NCBI RefSeq assembly: GCF_008642235.1
Contig: NZ_SJEV01000001.1
Span: 620,001-684,000, forward strand
DNA from: Planctomonas psychrotolerans
GTDB lineage: Bacteria; Actinomycetota; Actinomycetes; Actinomycetales; Microbacteriaceae
Direction of reading: 5' to 3'
DNA length: 64,000 nt
The notes beneath the pieces are model-generated. The model was given only the letters and a program-made list of their open reading frames with translations. It did not search any database and was not told the origin of the DNA. Shown here piece after piece: positions 1,188 to 7,218 of this stretch (position 1 is its first letter; the number at the start of each line of letters is the position of its first letter). Position numbers and translations under genes: made by a program.

Positions 1188-3008
1188 CTACGCGACGCGC
1201 GGGACCAGACCGAGCGCCTCGGCCCGGCGCGACCTGCCGACCGCCAGGCGGGCCAGCACGAGGCTGACCCCACCGAAGAGCACGAGCACGACGGCCGCGG
1301 CGAAGACGGTGCCCGCCGACCCGCCGGTGAGGATGCTCTGCATCCCCGCCACCGCGTGCGTGAGCGGGAGGTACGGGCTGATCGCCTGGAACGGACGCGC
1401 GACGAGCTCGATCGGGTAGAGCCCGCCCGTCGCCGAGAGTTGCACGGTGAGTGCGAGCAACGACAGCACGAGCCCGATCCGGCCGAACGCCTGGCTGAGC
1501 AGCGAGTGGATCGCGGTGAACACGATCGCCACCAGCAGGGAGAAGGCCAGCGTCGCGGGCAGCAGCAGCCAGTCCACCCCCACGCCGATGTGCAGCAGCG
1601 CCACGAGCAGCACCGCCTGCACCGCCGCGATCGCCGCCGACCGTCCGAAGGACCGGCCGAAGAGGCGCCCGGTCGGCACGGCGGATGCGAGCAGGCGGCG
1701 CGGAACCGGCCGTGCCGCGAGGAAGATGGCCAGGGCTCCCACCCAGAGGCCGATCGGCACGACGACCGTGCTCACGCTCAGGGCCACATCGTCCACCTCG
1801 TTGTCTCGGGTGACGGTGAGGCCGATCGGATCGGCGGCGATCTCGGCGGCCGCCTCGTTCTGGTCGGGATCGGCGGAGGGCACCTGACCCGCGCCGGCTT
1901 GCAACCCGGTGGCGAGCTCCGCCGCACCCGTTTCGAGGCTGACCGCGCCTTCGCGTGCACCGGCCGCGCCCGTGGCGAGCTCGCCCAGGCCGTCGCGCAA
2001 CGCGACCGAACCGTTCCGCAGCTGCGACGACCCGGCCGAGAGCTGGGCCGCCCCCGACGCACTCGCCGAGATGCCGTCCTGGATGCCGTCGACGGCGCCG
2101 GAGGTCTGGCCGCTGAGCTCGGTGCCCGCGGTGTCGAGCGCGGCGAGCCCCGCCTCGTACTCGTCGAGGGCCGCGCGGAGCGGCTCGTTGGTCGGGTTCT
2201 GCAGCAGCCCCTCCTTGAGGGCGGTGAAGCCCTCGCGCGCCGAACCGACCCCGGCCGTGTACTGCGTCACGCCGTCGCTCAATTGCGTCAGACCCTCCGC
2301 TCCCTCGTCGAGGGATGAGAGACCGCCGCTCAACCGGTCGGCACCGCGCGTGTAGGCGTCGATCCCGTTGGCGAGGCTGCCCGCTCCCTCCTGGGAGGCT
2401 CCCGCACCGTTCGCGAGCGAACCGATGCCGTCGGCGAGCGACGCCGCGCCGCCCGAGAGCGCGGTGGCACCGTCGGCGGCCTGCTGCAGGGAACCGCCGA
2501 GGTCACCGATGCTCGAGTAGATCCCGCCGATGTACTGGGCGGTGATGTCGTTGCCGAAGATGCTGACCATGCCCTCGGCGACCGCCTGGGTGATCACCCC
2601 GGTGAGGTAGCTGTGCGCGTCGTCGGTCTCGATCGTGAGCTGAGCCCGCTTCGGGTCGTTCGTCGAGAGGGAGGTGATCGAGGCCGAGAAGTCCTCGGGC
2701 ACGGTGAGCACGGCGTAGACCTCGCCGCTCCCCAGCATGTCCGCGGCCTCGTCGCCGTTGGTGATGGTCCAGTCGAACGCCTGCGACTCGTCGCCGGTGA
2801 GCTCGGTCACGAGCAGGCGTCCGGCGAGCACCGGTTGCTCCGTGCCGTCGGGCAGCACCTGCTGCACCATCTCGTCGTCGTTCACGATCGCCGCCGGGAT
2901 CCGATCGATCGCGGAGTCCGCCTCGGCGAGCGCCCCGACGAACACGCCGGCGACGACGAGGGGAACCGCGGCGAGGAACGCGACGGCAAGGTTTCTGCGG
3001 GTTCTCAT
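1188..3008 (-). CDS. YhgE/Pip family membrane protein
   Basis: Protein of 606 aa with one N-terminal membrane segment (about residues 8-30), a long extracytoplasmic region and a cluster of about five or six membrane segments near the C-terminus (about residues 405-595). This is the plan of the YhgE/Pip family, whose C-terminal part resembles ABC-2 type permeases. The middle (about residues 180-390) is built of alanine/glycine/serine-rich coiled repeats of the type LxxGxxxLxxGxxxL, as in phage-infection-protein homologues. The ATG at 3008 overlaps the stop of the upstream MMPL gene by 4 bp (ATGA), so the two are translationally coupled. Role in export is inferred from the partner; no substrate can be read from sequence. 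Confidence 0.85.
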   Translation of the reverse strand: MRTRRNLAVAFLAAVPLVVAGVFVGALAEADSAIDRIPAAIVNDDEMVQQVLPDGTEQPVLAGRLLVTELTGDESQAFDWTITNGDEAADMLGSGEVYAVLTVPEDFSASITSLSTNDPKRAQLTIETDDAHSYLTGVITQAVAEGMVSIFGNDITAQYIGGIYSSIGDLGGSLQQAADGATALSGGAASLADGIGSLANGAGASQEGAGSLANGIDAYTRGADRLSGGLSSLDEGAEGLTQLSDGVTQYTAGVGSAREGFTALKEGLLQNPTNEPLRAALDEYEAGLAALDTAGTELSGQTSGAVDGIQDGISASASGAAQLSAGSSQLRNGSVALRDGLGELATGAAGAREGAVSLETGAAELATGLQAGAGQVPSADPDQNEAAAEIAADPIGLTVTRDNEVDDVALSVSTVVVPIGLWVGALAIFLAARPVPRRLLASAVPTGRLFGRSFGRSAAIAAVQAVLLVALLHIGVGVDWLLLPATLAFSLLVAIVFTAIHSLLSQAFGRIGLVLSLLALTVQLSATGGLYPIELVARPFQAISPYLPLTHAVAGMQSILTGGSAGTVFAAAVVLVLFGGVSLVLARLAVGRSRRAEALGLVPRVA

Positions 3009-5911
3009 CGGGTGCCTTCCAGGACAACGGCGGCGTCGGGCTCCGACGCAGGGGCGAGTGTGGTGAGGTCGACATGGAGAGCATCGGATGCCGTCCCCGC
3101 GCCGGGCGGCGTCGCCCGTCCGAGGATGATCGTGGTGCCGTCGTCCACGAGGGCCCGCACGGCGGTGAGGAAGCCGTCGCTCTCGCCGGGCGCGGGGAAC
3201 GCGTCGGCGGAGTCGATCAGCAGCACCGGGGTGCCCTCGACCGCCGCCACCGCGGCGAGCACCACCGCGCGTGGCAGGGGCGCGAGCTCGGCTACGCCGG
3301 TCCGTGCGCTGACCACGTTTCGCGATCCGGCCATGGCCAATGCCGCATTGATGCGGGCGACCTCGTCGCGCAGGGTCGACCGGGCGGCGGGGCGGCGCAG
3401 CCCGCGGGCCAGCGTGAGGCGCTCGCCGAGCATCGCTCCCACCGACAGGGAGGCGTCGGTGCTCGACAGGCGACCGGCATCCACCATGGCCACGGCGCGC
3501 ATCGCCGCGGACGCCTCGGACGGCAACGGATACCCCGCCACCTGCAGGCGCCCGGACACCGGATCCAGTCGGCCCGCGAGGGTCGCGGCCAGTGCCCGAC
3601 GGTCGGCGGAGTGCCCCGAGACGAGCACGGTGGAGCCCCGCGGCACACGGAGGGTGAGGGGGCCGACGGAGGAGCCACCCGCGCCGACGACGAGGGCGTC
3701 GGCGGTGACCACGGAGTCGCCCTGCGTCTCGGCCCAGCGAGCGGCTTCGCGGTGCACTCCGAGGTTCTCGCCCTCGATGTCGGTGTTCGGCAGGATGCGG
3801 CCGAGCCACTTCGGCAGCCACCACGCCCCTCGACGGGCGAGGGCCATGGCGGCGGGCACGAGTGTCATCCGCACCAGGAAAGCGTCGAAGAAGATGCCCA
3901 CGGCGAGGCCGAGCGCGATGGTCTTGATCACCCCCGCGCCCTCCGGCACGAAGGCCGCGAAGACGAAGAACATGATGAGGGCCGCGGCCGTCACCACGCG
4001 CGCCGCGCCGGCGAAGCCCTGCACGATCGCGCCTCGCGCGTCGCCGGTGTGCACGAAGTGCTCCCGCATGCCGGAGACGAGGAACACCTCGTAGTCCATG
4101 GCGAGTCCGAACAGGATGGCCATCAGCAGGATGGGCATGAAGCTGAGGATCGGCCCGGGCGTCACGTGCAGCGCCTCCGCGAGGAAGCCGTCCTGGAAGA
4201 TCGTCACCACCACGCCGAACGACACGACCACCGACAGCAGGAAGCCGACCGCGGCTTTGATCGGCACGAACACCGAGCGGAACACGATCATCAGCAGCAC
4301 GATCGACAGGCCGACCACCACGACGCCGAACGGGATGAGGGCGTTGTTCAACCGGGTGGAGATGTCGGTCTGGATGGCGGTGGCACCGGTGACCGCGATG
4401 GCGGTGTCGTACTCGTCCTCGATGCCCGGCGCCAGGTCGCGGATGCGTTCGACGAGCGCGGCGGTCTCGGGCGCATCCGGACCACTCTCCGGCAGCACCT
4501 GGATGATCGCGGTGTCGACCGACGGGTTGGGCGTCGGCGTGCCGACGAAGGCCACGTCCTCGAGGTCGCGCAGCTCGTCCGCGATGCCGTCGAGGTCACC
4601 GATCGGGTCGGTGGTCTGCGTGATGTCCACCAGCAGGATGAGCGGTCCGTTGTATCCGGGACCGAAGTTCTCGGAGATCGTGTCGTACGCGGCGCGGGCG
4701 GTGGATCCCTCCGGCTCGGAGGCACCGCTCGGCAGCGCCAGCTGCAGGGAGAACGCGGGCACGACGAGCGCGCCGGCGATGGCGACCACGGCGAGCACGA
4801 ACACGATAGGGGCCTTCAGCACGATCCGCACCCAGCGTTCACCCGCCGACCGGCTGCCCGCGGCGGGGTGGGCACGGCGGTAGGCGCGGGATCCGACCTT
4901 GGGCGCCAGCCGCGCTCCGGCCAGGCCGAGCATCGCGGGCAGCAGGGTGAGCGCGGCCAGCATCGCGGACAGTACGGCGAAGGCGGCCGCCACTCCCATC
5001 ACGCTGAGGAACGGGATGCCCACGACGAGCAGGCCGAGGAGCGCGATGATCACCGTCACCCCGGCGAACACCACGGCGCTCCCCGCCGTGGCGACGGCGG
5101 TGGCGGCCGACTCGGCGGGATCCATGCCGCGCGCCAACTGGTTGCGATGCCGCACGAGGATGAAGAGGGCGTAGTCGATGCCGACCGCCAGGCCGATCAT
5201 CACCGCGAGCAACGGCGACGCGCTCGACACCGGCATGACGGCGGCCACGGCGAGCACGCCGCCCATCACCACGCCGATTCCGGCGATGGCGGTGATCAGC
5301 GGCATCCCGGCACTCACGAGCGAACCGAAGGTGATCACCAGCACGAGCGCCGCGAACGCGACGCCGATGAGCTCGGTCACCGTGAGTCCGTACTCGAGGT
5401 CCTGGAACACCTGGCCGCCGAACTCCACGGTCATGCCCGCGCTCTCGGCGGCTTCGGCGGCGTCCTGAACCGCCTCGATGTCGGCTTCCGACACGTCGTC
5501 GGCCTGGCCGTCGAACTGTACCTGACCGATCGCCACCGCGTCGTTGTCGGACACGGCGTCCGAGGCGTATTCGGAGAACGGCGACAGCGCCTGCTCCACG
5601 GCACCGACCTCGCCGGCGGCGGCGATGGACTCCTCGATCGCCGCGCTGTTGCCCTCGTCCCGCACCGACTCGCCGTCGGGCGCGATGAACACCATCTGCG
5701 CGCTCGCGCCGGCGGCCTGCGGGAACACGGCGGAGAGTCGGTCGAGCGCTTCCTGGGACTCGGTGCCGGGGATGGCGAACGACTCCTCCGTTGCGCCGCC
5801 GAGCGCCAGGCCGCCTCCGATGAAGAGCGCGAGGAGCAGCAGCCATGCGGAGAGGACGCGCCACGAGTGCCGGTAGGCGAGCGTGCCGAGGCGGAACAGC
5901 GAATGTGCCAT
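3005..5911 (-). CDS. MMPL/RND transporter with fused degenerate ABC-ATPase-like domain
   Basis: Protein of 968 aa. Residues 1 to about 715 form an MMPL (RND-type) transporter: an N-terminal membrane helix, two extracytoplasmic domains and two bundles of membrane helices. Both proton-relay Asp-Tyr pairs are there, in GIDYALF (about residue 240) and AMDYEVF (about residue 605). Residues from about 729 to the end are extra: they resemble an ABC ATPase, with a P-loop position reading SGHSADRRAL (near 763; the GxGKS core is lost) and a Walker-B-like VLLIDSADAF (near 900). I see no LSGGQ signature. It is the second gene of a TetR-controlled operon and is coupled to the YhgE-like gene. Likely an efflux or lipid-export pump driven by proton motive force; the C-terminal domain is probably non-hydrolytic and regulatory (inference). 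Confidence 0.85.
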   Translation of the reverse strand: MAHSLFRLGTLAYRHSWRVLSAWLLLLALFIGGGLALGGATEESFAIPGTESQEALDRLSAVFPQAAGASAQMVFIAPDGESVRDEGNSAAIEESIAAAGEVGAVEQALSPFSEYASDAVSDNDAVAIGQVQFDGQADDVSEADIEAVQDAAEAAESAGMTVEFGGQVFQDLEYGLTVTELIGVAFAALVLVITFGSLVSAGMPLITAIAGIGVVMGGVLAVAAVMPVSSASPLLAVMIGLAVGIDYALFILVRHRNQLARGMDPAESAATAVATAGSAVVFAGVTVIIALLGLLVVGIPFLSVMGVAAAFAVLSAMLAALTLLPAMLGLAGARLAPKVGSRAYRRAHPAAGSRSAGERWVRIVLKAPIVFVLAVVAIAGALVVPAFSLQLALPSGASEPEGSTARAAYDTISENFGPGYNGPLILLVDITQTTDPIGDLDGIADELRDLEDVAFVGTPTPNPSVDTAIIQVLPESGPDAPETAALVERIRDLAPGIEDEYDTAIAVTGATAIQTDISTRLNNALIPFGVVVVGLSIVLLMIVFRSVFVPIKAAVGFLLSVVVSFGVVVTIFQDGFLAEALHVTPGPILSFMPILLMAILFGLAMDYEVFLVSGMREHFVHTGDARGAIVQGFAGAARVVTAAALIMFFVFAAFVPEGAGVIKTIALGLAVGIFFDAFLVRMTLVPAAMALARRGAWWLPKWLGRILPNTDIEGENLGVHREAARWAETQGDSVVTADALVVGAGGSSVGPLTLRVPRGSTVLVSGHSADRRALAATLAGRLDPVSGRLQVAGYPLPSEASAAMRAVAMVDAGRLSSTDASLSVGAMLGERLTLARGLRRPAARSTLRDEVARINAALAMAGSRNVVSARTGVAELAPLPRAVVLAAVAAVEGTPVLLIDSADAFPAPGESDGFLTAVRALVDDGTTIILGRATPPGAGTASDALHVDLTTLAPASEPDAAVVLEGTR

Positions 5912-5951: not shown

Positions 5952-6551
5952 TCAGAGCGCGGTGGGCCGAAGGTGGATGGGGGCGAGCAGTTCGGTCACC
6001 ACGGCGACGAGCGCCGAGCGGATCTCGTCGACCGGCAACGGATCGCGCGACCAGGTTTCCGACGCGACGAGCATGTACGCGGCGCCTCCGAGCGCCACGC
6101 CGAATCGCACCTTGTCGACGGCGGTGGCCATGTCACCGCTCAGGGACTCGGCGAGCTCGACGATGAGCGAATTCGCCCTGTGGATCACCGGGATGCCCTG
6201 CAACGATTGACCCTGATTGATGAACATGTGCACGGAGAGCCGGTTCTCCAGCAGGAAATCGACGAACTGCGCCACGAACTCGCCCTGCGAGGAGGGCGTC
6301 GCCCCTCGTCGCGCGAAGTCGTTCAAAATACCGGTCAGCGTCTCGATCGCGGGGCTGAGCGCTGCCTCGAGCAGGGTCTCCTTCGCCGCGAAGTGGTACA
6401 GCACGGTCGACTTCGAATAGCCGGCTATGTCGGCGATCTGCGACAGCGAGGTGCCGGAGTACCCGACCGAGGCGAACTGCTCCAGCGCCACACCGAGTAG
6501 TTCATCGCGGGCCGAACTGCGGGACGCCACGGGGACGGGAGATGGAAGCAC
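5952..6551 (-). CDS. TetR family transcriptional regulator
   Basis: About 199 aa. The N-terminal helix-turn-helix is clear: ALEQFASVGYSGTSLSQIAD followed by GYSKSTVLYHF, the TetR recognition helix. The C-terminal ligand domain is unassigned. The start is uncertain: the reading frame opens at 6611, but that would place coding sequence over a palindromic operator at 6565-6599, so I prefer the GTG at 6551 (GTG at 6530 is the alternative). It lies 40 bp upstream of the MMPL gene on the same strand, so it is the first gene of the tetR-MMPL-YhgE operon and probably an autorepressor released by the pump's substrate. Confidence 0.87.
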   Translation of the reverse strand: MLPSPVPVASRSSARDELLGVALEQFASVGYSGTSLSQIADIAGYSKSTVLYHFAAKETLLEAALSPAIETLTGILNDFARRGATPSSQGEFVAQFVDFLLENRLSVHMFINQGQSLQGIPVIHRANSLIVELAESLSGDMATAVDKVRFGVALGGAAYMLVASETWSRDPLPVDEIRSALVAVVTELLAPIHLRPTAL

Positions 6552-6564
6552 TGGTCGAGGATAC

Positions 6565-6599
6565 CTGACCGATCGGTCAGAAACTGCACGATCGGTCAG
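6565..6599. promoter_or_regulatory. tandem palindromic TetR operator
   Basis: A perfect 16-bp palindrome CTGACCGATCGGTCAG (6565-6580) is followed after 3 bp by a near copy CTGCACGATCGGTCAG (6584-6599). The centres are 19 bp apart, two helical turns. The sites sit just upstream of the proposed tetR start and between tetR and the divergent small membrane genes, so the regulator could control both directions. Confidence 0.8.
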
Positions 6600-6691: not shown

Positions 6692-6877
6692 ATGCGCAAA
6701 TACATTCTGAACGGCAGCATCCTGAGCGCACTGTTCGGTGCCTGGAGCACGATCAAGGTCACCCGCGAGGGACCGCACGACTGGCGTCTCGTGCTCATGT
6801 GGGTCAGCTGGGCGATCACCATGGTCATCGCCATCGGCGCCGTGCACGACGACTCCAAGGAACTCGACCGGCGATGA
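6692..6877 (+). CDS. small membrane protein, unknown function
   Basis: A 61-aa protein with two probable membrane helices (about residues 8-20 and 30-50). The ATG at 6692 is preceded by GAGGGAG at good spacing. It diverges from the tetR-MMPL operon across the palindromic operator, and its stop overlaps the start of the next gene (ATGA). I recognise no family. It may be co-regulated with the efflux operon; alternatively it is an independent small membrane protein. Confidence 0.62.
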   Translation: MRKYILNGSILSALFGAWSTIKVTREGPHDWRLVLMWVSWAITMVIAIGAVHDDSKELDRR

Positions 6878-7218
6878 ACCCGGAGGACCGCTTCGCCGGG
6901 TTTTCCGCACTCGTCGAGCGATTGTTCTTCGTCGGCTTCAGCGCGGTCGCGTTCCTCGCGCTCGTCGTCGTCGTCGGCCTCCTCGTCCGCTTCCTGCTGG
7001 TCGCGACGAAGGCTGCCGAGATCTACGTGAGGCAGAACTCGGCCGCGCCGGGCGCACGTCCCAGTTCGCCGGGCGCTTCCGCGTCCACGGCTGGCCCGTC
7101 GACCACGGTGCCCGGTGCGCCGCCGACGCGACCGTACCCGCGCTCGACCGCGGGTACGGACTCGCACGAAGGCGCGACGACGAGCACCGCGTCCCCCGTC
7201 GATCCGCGCCAGTCCTAG
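6874..7218 (+). CDS. small membrane protein with Pro/Ser/Thr-rich tail
   Basis: A 114-aa protein with one strong membrane segment (about residues 16-43, rich in V, L, F) followed by a low-complexity tail rich in Ala, Pro, Ser and Thr, as in cell-wall-spanning anchors. Start and the upstream stop overlap by 4 bp, so translation is coupled to the preceding 61-aa protein. No family recognised. Composition suggests a single-pass protein whose tail is disordered. Confidence 0.58.
   Translation: MNPEDRFAGFSALVERLFFVGFSAVAFLALVVVVGLLVRFLLVATKAAEIYVRQNSAAPGARPSSPGASASTAGPSTTVPGAPPTRPYPRSTAGTDSHEGATTSTASPVDPRQS

What the first reader, a model, noticed from the sequence alone, without database searches (positions are those of the whole stretch)
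3005..5911. MMPL pump fused to a degenerate ABC-ATPase domain and coupled to a YhgE/Pip permease
The 968-aa protein keeps both proton-relay Asp-Tyr pairs of an RND/MMPL pump, but has about 240 extra residues with an ABC-like P-loop position (SGHSADRRAL) that has lost the GxGKS core, and a Walker-B-like VLLIDSADAF. The next, translationally coupled gene is a YhgE/Pip protein whose C-terminus resembles ABC-2 permeases. One reading: an ABC transporter (ATPase + YhgE) merged its ATPase with an MMPL pump, leaving a hybrid exporter in which the ATPase became a scaffold. A TetR operator controls it.
Basis: partly seen in the sequence, partly recalled or inferred. Interest (0 to 1): 0.62.

Follow-up and report, generated by a model that had tools for sequence, protein, structure and literature searches.

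The report
Proton pump fused to dead ABC ATPase
A proton-driven lipid-type export pump in many actinobacteria carries, fused to its end, the worn-out ATPase domain of a different transporter class, and its gene sits next to the gene for that transporter's membrane channel, which suggests a natural hybrid of two transporter families that are normally separate.

Summary
Residues 711-968 of the 968-aa MMPL protein hold a true ABC nucleotide-binding domain (NBD) homologue. A family profile of the tail finds 438 PDB sequences, best E 5e-21; the 60 shown are ABC proteins. The tail model aligns to ABC ATPases with Z up to 12.8. The window's copy lacks Walker A, LSGGQ and the catalytic Glu but keeps the Walker-B Asp, with Arg on the Walker-A Lys column.

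The fusion is no artefact. Of 118 fused loci examined, 115 have YhgE directly downstream; of 52 unfused MMPL loci none has YhgE. The fused pumps form one clade. The window's sub-clade of 65 keeps TetR (65/65) and its operator (62/65 within 2 mismatches). Both proton-relay Asp-Tyr pairs are kept in 113/113; the Walker-A Lys in 11/118. Tail dN/dS is 0.09-0.36 in 16 pairs.

Twenty YhgE loci without a pump all have a free homologue of this NBD just upstream, also without LSGGQ or catalytic Glu. So part of the degeneration is probably older than the fusion. The scaffold role and proton-only power are inferred, not shown.

The parts
3005..5911 (-). MMPL (RND) pump with fused NBD-like tail, 968 aa
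   Evidence: PF03176 E 1.9e-89 in two stretches; AF2 full-length model pLDDT 84, Foldseek top hits MmpL3, TM-score by target length 0.74 at rank 1
3008..3781 (-). NBD-like tail, residues 711-968 (linker 711-730, core about 731-955)
   Evidence: profile vs PDB ABC proteins E 5.4e-21; VIA-align Z 12.8, rmsd 3.8 over 198 residues at best
3590..3619 (-). degenerate P-loop position SGHSADRRAL (residues 765-774); R771 sits on the Walker-A Lys column
   Evidence: R771 in 95% and R772 in 83% of the 65 members of the window's sub-clade
3197..3226 (-). Walker-B-like VLLIDSADAF (residues 896-905); D900 kept, catalytic Glu absent
   Evidence: D900 in 86% of the 65 members
5171..5176 (-). first proton-relay pair D246-Y247
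   Evidence: D and Y in 113 of 113 fused pumps
4091..4096 (-). second proton-relay pair D606-Y607
   Evidence: D and Y in 113 of 113 fused pumps
1188..3008 (-). YhgE/Pip protein, 606 aa, ABC-2-like membrane part plus LxxG heptad repeats; overlaps the MMPL stop (ATGA)
   Evidence: TIGR03061, TIGR03062 and TIGR03057 above cut-off; PF12698
5952..6551 (-). TetR-family regulator (open frame to 6611; GTG start near 6551 likely from relatives)
   Evidence: PF00440 E 2.4e-12; TetR just upstream in 65 of 65 loci of the window's sub-clade
6566..6579 (.). TetR operator TGACCGATCGGTCA
   Evidence: inverted repeat; best match upstream of TetR has mean 0.54 mismatches in 65 loci against 5.59 in shuffles
6585..6598 (.). 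second operator-like copy, 2 mismatches
   Evidence: read directly

Best explanation
A TetR-regulated three-gene operon makes a hybrid exporter. The MMPL part is a proton-driven RND pump, probably for a lipid or other amphiphile. Its cytosolic C-terminal domain is a former ATPase partner of the YhgE/Pip permease, captured by gene fusion. In the window's clade it can hardly work as a canonical ATPase: the nucleotide pocket has an Arg pair (R771-R772) in place of Lys-Ser and lacks the signature and the catalytic Glu, while the Walker-B Asp stays, so an internal Arg-Asp bridge may plug the site. It most likely serves as a docking plate that holds YhgE, the ABC-2-like permease with LxxG repeats, next to the pump, so that substrate moved by the proton pump is handed on or YhgE is driven mechanically. 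Shown: domain homology, gene order, operator conservation, conservation of the relay, decay of the ATP site. Inferred: co-transcription, contact with YhgE, proton-only power, substrate.
For: ABC homology of the tail. YhgE directly downstream in 115 of 118 fused loci against 0 of 52 unfused; the three misses are a contig end (L220), a frameshifted pump with YhgE still present (L116), and a locus where YhgE is present but my distance rule failed on its HMM domain (L235). No pump ORF among the 52 unfused loci has an NBD tail. ATGA/GTGA overlap in 86 of 115. Outside the fusion, 20 of 20 YhgE stretches have a free NBD homologue just upstream: 15 by BLAST, 5 more only by a profile. Tails and free YhgE-linked NBDs are one clade. 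Asp-Tyr pairs 113 of 113, while the Walker-A Lys is absent in 107 of 118 and changes at least 5 times on the pump tree (2 forced by well-supported branches). Tail dN/dS 0.09-0.36 in 16 of 16 pairs. TetR and operator.
Against: No physical contact, transport or energetics was tested. A partial mirror-tree test did not single out tail and YhgE: 0.59 given MMPL, against 0.42 for tail-TetR but 0.59 for YhgE-TetR. In many tails of the second sub-clade the helical subdomain, where ABC permeases usually dock (recalled), is missing (tails of about 180-235 aa), yet YhgE remains. Eleven fused tails keep the Walker-A Lys, so ATP binding may matter there. The tail is under looser constraint than the pump in 15 of 16 pairs. 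In the NBD tree the fused tails are not one group, which does not fit a single fusion without further events.
Confidence: 0.5

Rival explanations
1. The tail is an NBD that still works with nucleotides: it pairs with an intact NBD from another gene, as degenerate NBDs do in heterodimeric ABC exporters (recalled), or binds ATP without Walker A, so the system is ATP-powered or ATP-gated.
For: Eleven fused tails keep the Walker-A Lys; the fold, the Walker-B Asp (101 of 118) and, in the window's clade, the helical subdomain are kept; the own genome has 85 PF00005 matches, so partners exist.
Against: No other NBD gene between tetR and yhgE; SGG of the signature is 0 of 137 and a Glu in the catalytic column 1 of 137 (L227, without the Walker-B Asp) in fused and free members; the Lys column changes at least 5 times on the tree while the proton relay is invariant.
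Confidence: 0.2
2. Pump and permease do not form one machine. The tail is a regulatory or oligomerising domain of the pump, and YhgE is a co-expressed protein with its own job (for example in the envelope).
For: Co-expression alone would explain operon linkage; the mirror-tree control gave nothing specific.
Against: The domain is homologous to the protein that sits beside YhgE elsewhere as a free gene, and 115 of 118 fused pumps have YhgE next to them against 0 of 52 unfused pumps.
Confidence: 0.22
3. The tail is a decaying relic without function.
For: Motifs are lost and constraint is looser than in the pump in 15 of 16 pairs.
Against: dN/dS 0.09-0.36; new conserved residues such as R771 at 95%; a match running from pump into tail in at least 113 of 347 genomes of the order (my count from the cut list).
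Confidence: 0.04

Closest known systems
MmpL3 / HAE2-type MMPL transporters (RND superfamily)
   Same: Fold and both Asp-Tyr pairs; the best Foldseek hits are MmpL3 chains
   Different: The MmpL3 model NF052608 is far under its cut-off (204 of 1400 bits); an NBD tail and a YhgE partner, which I do not know (recall) from any solved MmpL
ABC-2 type exporters (NBD plus ABC-2 permease)
   Same: NBD-fold domain and an ABC-2-like permease encoded side by side
   Different: The NBD is fused to a proton pump and lacks Walker A, LSGGQ and catalytic Glu
YhgE/Pip proteins, incl. Lactococcus/Enterococcus PIP phage receptor and EsaA of type VIIb secretion
   Same: YhgE N- and C-terminal models above cut-off; weak match to the EsaA N-terminal model
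   Different: No NBD-fused pump is mentioned for PIP or EsaA in the passages read (PMC4999554); there the YhgE/PIP domain is said to lack a known function
Free NBD-like ATPases upstream of yhgE in actinomycetes (L240-L259)
   Same: One clade with the tail; signature and catalytic Glu also absent
   Different: Separate gene, often GSGRT in the P-loop, no MMPL hit in the stretch (0 of 20)

Membership tests
RND/MMPL transporter | two MMPL domains | tested here: met
   PF03176, 2 stretches, E 1.9e-89
RND/MMPL transporter | Asp-Tyr proton relay in TM4 and TM10 (helix numbers recalled) | tested here: met
   D246-Y247, D606-Y607; 113 of 113 fused pumps
RND/MMPL transporter | proton-driven transport | not testable with these tools
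   needs an assay
ABC nucleotide-binding domain | ABC NBD fold | tested here: met
ABC nucleotide-binding domain | Pfam ABC_tran match | tested here: not met
   none for the window tail; 12 of 68 family members at E<=0.01
ABC nucleotide-binding domain | Walker A GxxGxGK[ST] | tested here: not met
   SGHSADRRAL; own-genome control 25 of 25 with GK[ST]
ABC nucleotide-binding domain | LSGGQ signature | tested here: not met
   SGG in 0 of 137 fused and free members in the aligned column, which is a gap or unaligned in tails without a helical subdomain; control 24 of 25
ABC nucleotide-binding domain | Walker B Asp followed by catalytic Glu | tested here: not met
   Asp kept (D900), Glu absent; control 24 of 25
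YhgE/Pip | N- and C-terminal YhgE models, LxxG heptads | tested here: met
   TIGR03061, TIGR03062, TIGR03057 above cut-off
ABC-2 exporter (complete) | ABC-2 permease beside an ATPase with intact motifs | tested here: not met
   permease present but the ATPase motifs are lost
ABC-2 exporter (complete) | permease and NBD form one complex | not testable with these tools
   no complex prediction or assay available

The most novel reading that the evidence does not exclude
A natural cross-superfamily transporter: an ABC-2-type permease (YhgE) that is powered not by ATP but by a proton-driven RND pump, which grips it through the permease's own former ATPase. The engine was swapped while the coupling part was kept, and the ATP site was plugged by an Arg-Asp pair.
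Probability: 0.25. Interest if true: 0.9.

Novelty: new variant of a known kind. Interest (0 to 1): 0.68.

Why it matters
RND pumps run on protons and ABC transporters on ATP, and the two are treated as separate machines. A conserved fusion of one to the other's ATPase, in which the proton relay is invariant and the ATP site has decayed in most members, would show how an ABC permease can change its energy source. It also gives the orphan YhgE/Pip family (known from phage receptors and type VII secretion) a candidate partner in actinomycetes: an NBD-like protein, either free or on an MMPL pump. Both claims can be tested in harmless soil strains.

Tried and rejected
Single-sequence searches of the tail gave no or weak matches, so family profiles were needed. 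The tail-only AF2 model was poor (pLDDT 64); the full-length model is better there (10-residue blocks of 731-940 between 65 and 94). Foldseek TM-scores for the tail-only model are modest (0.40-0.51 by query length). The mirror-tree test was not specific. My first own-genome motif control failed, apparently because minus-strand loci were read on the wrong strand; it was redone, where motifs are sought anywhere in the domain, a laxer test than the aligned columns. The nine canonical NBDs were picked by motif, so only one search is a fair motif control. Anti-phage models: no match. Promoter and terminator scan: nothing found. Artefact or frameshift as cause of the fusion: rejected, since 67 of 85 genera of the family have a tail match and most printed rows lie in frames over 900 aa. 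A three-gene intermediate (separate pump, NBD, YhgE) was not seen in the 20 YhgE stretches fetched. Some Streptomyces pumps (L151, L152) have long C-terminal extensions; they are not NBD-like. Literature: ten searches of open PMC papers showed no description of the fusion in the listings, of which at most the first 10-25 papers each were seen; three papers were read in passages only. Absence there is no proof.

Full report
What is there. The window lies in a 3.29-Mb, two-contig genome. Two sampled genomes count as same genus; one of them has a contig of the same length as one of Planctomonas deserti, Microbacteriaceae (G134:C181 and L118, 988264 bases). On the minus strand three genes follow each other: tetR, an MMPL pump of 968 aa, and yhgE/pip of 606 aa, the last two overlapping as ATGA.

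The tail is an ABC NBD homologue. The window's tail alone has no Pfam match and only weak NCBIfam and PDB matches. A profile of 68 relatives' tails finds 438 distinct PDB sequences at E<=0.01; the 60 shown are all ABC proteins, best E 5.4e-21, positions 32-223 of 257. Scanned singly, 12 of 68 members match ABC_tran, and some match AAA-type models, fewer and more weakly. AlphaFold2 of the full protein (30 sequences) gives mean pLDDT 84 and a strand and helix order like that of an NBD in residues 733-948. Foldseek finds MmpL3 first for the whole protein. The separately predicted tail is less sure (pLDDT 64), yet the 50 matches shown are ABC ATPases, with Z 12.8 and rmsd 3.8 over 198 residues at best.

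The ATP site. In an alignment of 118 fused tails, 19 free YhgE-linked NBDs and 9 canonical NBDs, Lys stands on the Walker-A Lys column in 11 of 118 fused and 2 of 19 free members; Arg stands there in 84 of 118 and 14 of 19. The Walker-B Asp is kept in 101 of 118 and 13 of 19. SGG of the signature occurs in 0 of 137, but tails without a helical subdomain have gaps or unaligned letters there. Glu in the catalytic column occurs in 1 of 137 (L227, where the Asp is missing). In the control, the 25 best ABC loci of the own genome, GK[ST] occurs in 25, SGG in 24 and DE in 24 of 25. Within the window's clade of 65, R771 (on the Lys column) is 95% conserved, R772 83%, D900 86%. A salt bridge between R771 and D900 that fills the pocket is my inference.

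Fusion and linkage. Tail matches at E<=1e-5 occur in 197 of 299 genomes of the family, most printed rows in frames over 900 aa, a few in free short ORFs. In the order, at least 113 of 347 genomes show a match from pump into tail (my count from printed rows, which are cut). In the class sample of 296 it also appears in a few genomes of three further families. In the phylum sample of 198, the printed matches outside the class end by position 186 of 394 and do not cover the tail. I fetched 108 stretches (80 of the family, 20 of the order, 8 of the class) and added the window and 12 loci; three family stretches held no pump. They were chosen by tail or pump match, not by YhgE. YhgE lies directly downstream on the same strand in 115 of 118; of the rest, L220 ends at the contig end, L116 has a frameshifted pump with YhgE further on, and L235 has YhgE but failed my distance rule. 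Of 52 unfused MMPL loci none has YhgE in the fetched stretch, some of which are short, and none of their pumps has an NBD tail.

Origin. Of 148 class genomes, 31 have a YhgE over the cut-off, at 34 places with the window's own and second places counted (my count of rows). I fetched 20 stretches that cover 21 of these places, leaving out the window's own, three beside fused pumps, and nine others. BLAST finds an NBD homologue next to YhgE in 15 of 20; a profile made from those and three more finds one in the other 5 too. So 20 of 20, the 15 being in the profile by construction. BLAST finds no MMPL in these stretches. A maximum-likelihood tree of 43 NBDs puts 15 fused tails and 19 free YhgE-linked NBDs in one clade (100/100) apart from 9 canonical NBDs; inside it the fused tails are not one group (two changes), so the tail tree does not itself show a single fusion. 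The tree of the pump part does: 113 fused pumps are one side of a branch against 15 unfused (FastTree local support 99), and the Walker-A Lys label needs at least 5 changes there (2 forced by well-supported branches). The conflict may come from long branches of degenerate tails, from replacement of tails, or from fission back to free genes.

Function kept. dN/dS (Nei-Gojobori) of the tail is 0.09-0.36 in the 16 close pairs that I chose, of the pump 0.03-0.27; the tail is looser in 15 of 16, and about equal (0.23, 0.24) in the one pair with a full Walker A and helical part (L233/L238). Both Asp-Tyr pairs are present in 113 of 113 fused pumps. TetR lies just upstream in 65 of 65 of the window's sub-clade, and the operator TGACCGATCGGTCA has mean 0.54 mismatches there against 5.59 in shuffles, 62 of 65 within two. 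Six of the 65 are loci (L119-L124), some of them near-copies of each other, so the numbers hold some near-copies. Among the other 53 fused loci a TetR is upstream in 6, of which L116-L118 are copies or kin of the window's sub-clade.

How it may work. See best explanation. The strongest part is homology and linkage; docking, proton power and substrate are inferred. The lipid idea rests on kinship to MmpL3 and on the statement in PMC3924187 (passages read) that HAE2 members export complex lipids; the same passages say that homologues of the PIP family include putative ABC-2 proteins. PMC4999554 (passages) says that the YhgE/PIP domain lacks a known function.

Verdict. A real, conserved and, in the papers searched, undescribed RND-ABC hybrid architecture. 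The parts are known; their union looks new.

Noticed in passing
L240-L253, L259: YhgE-linked free NBDs have Arg on the Walker-A Lys column (14 of 19 when L101, L105, L106 are counted) and no LSGGQ or catalytic Glu: a family of odd ABC ATPases in actinomycetes.
   Followed up: partly
L105, L106: Free NBDs with Walker-A Lys beside yhgE in Microbacteriaceae group with fused tails of other families (93/91), perhaps fission products.
   Followed up: partly
L116:2383-5321: In this relative the pump frame breaks inside the tail, with the rest of the tail in another frame; G016 has one TGA inside its tail match.
   Followed up: no
L094, L103, L109, L115: Tails that keep GK[ST] but lack most of the helical subdomain, the reverse pattern of the window's clade.
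   Followed up: partly
L251:2204-9197: Two NBD-yhgE pairs in tandem.
   Followed up: no
L151:5461-9147, L152:6001-9156: Streptomyces MMPL pumps with a different long C-terminal extension, not NBD-like; by eye it looks like tandem carboxypeptidase-regulatory-type repeats.
   Followed up: partly
G000:C1:1576662-1578869 (L005, L006): A 1154-aa frame with two weak MMPL matches (42 and 23 bits) in the same genome.
   Followed up: no
window 6692-6900: Small ORFs, membrane-like by eye, start divergently from tetR on the plus strand, so the operator may serve both sides.
   Followed up: no
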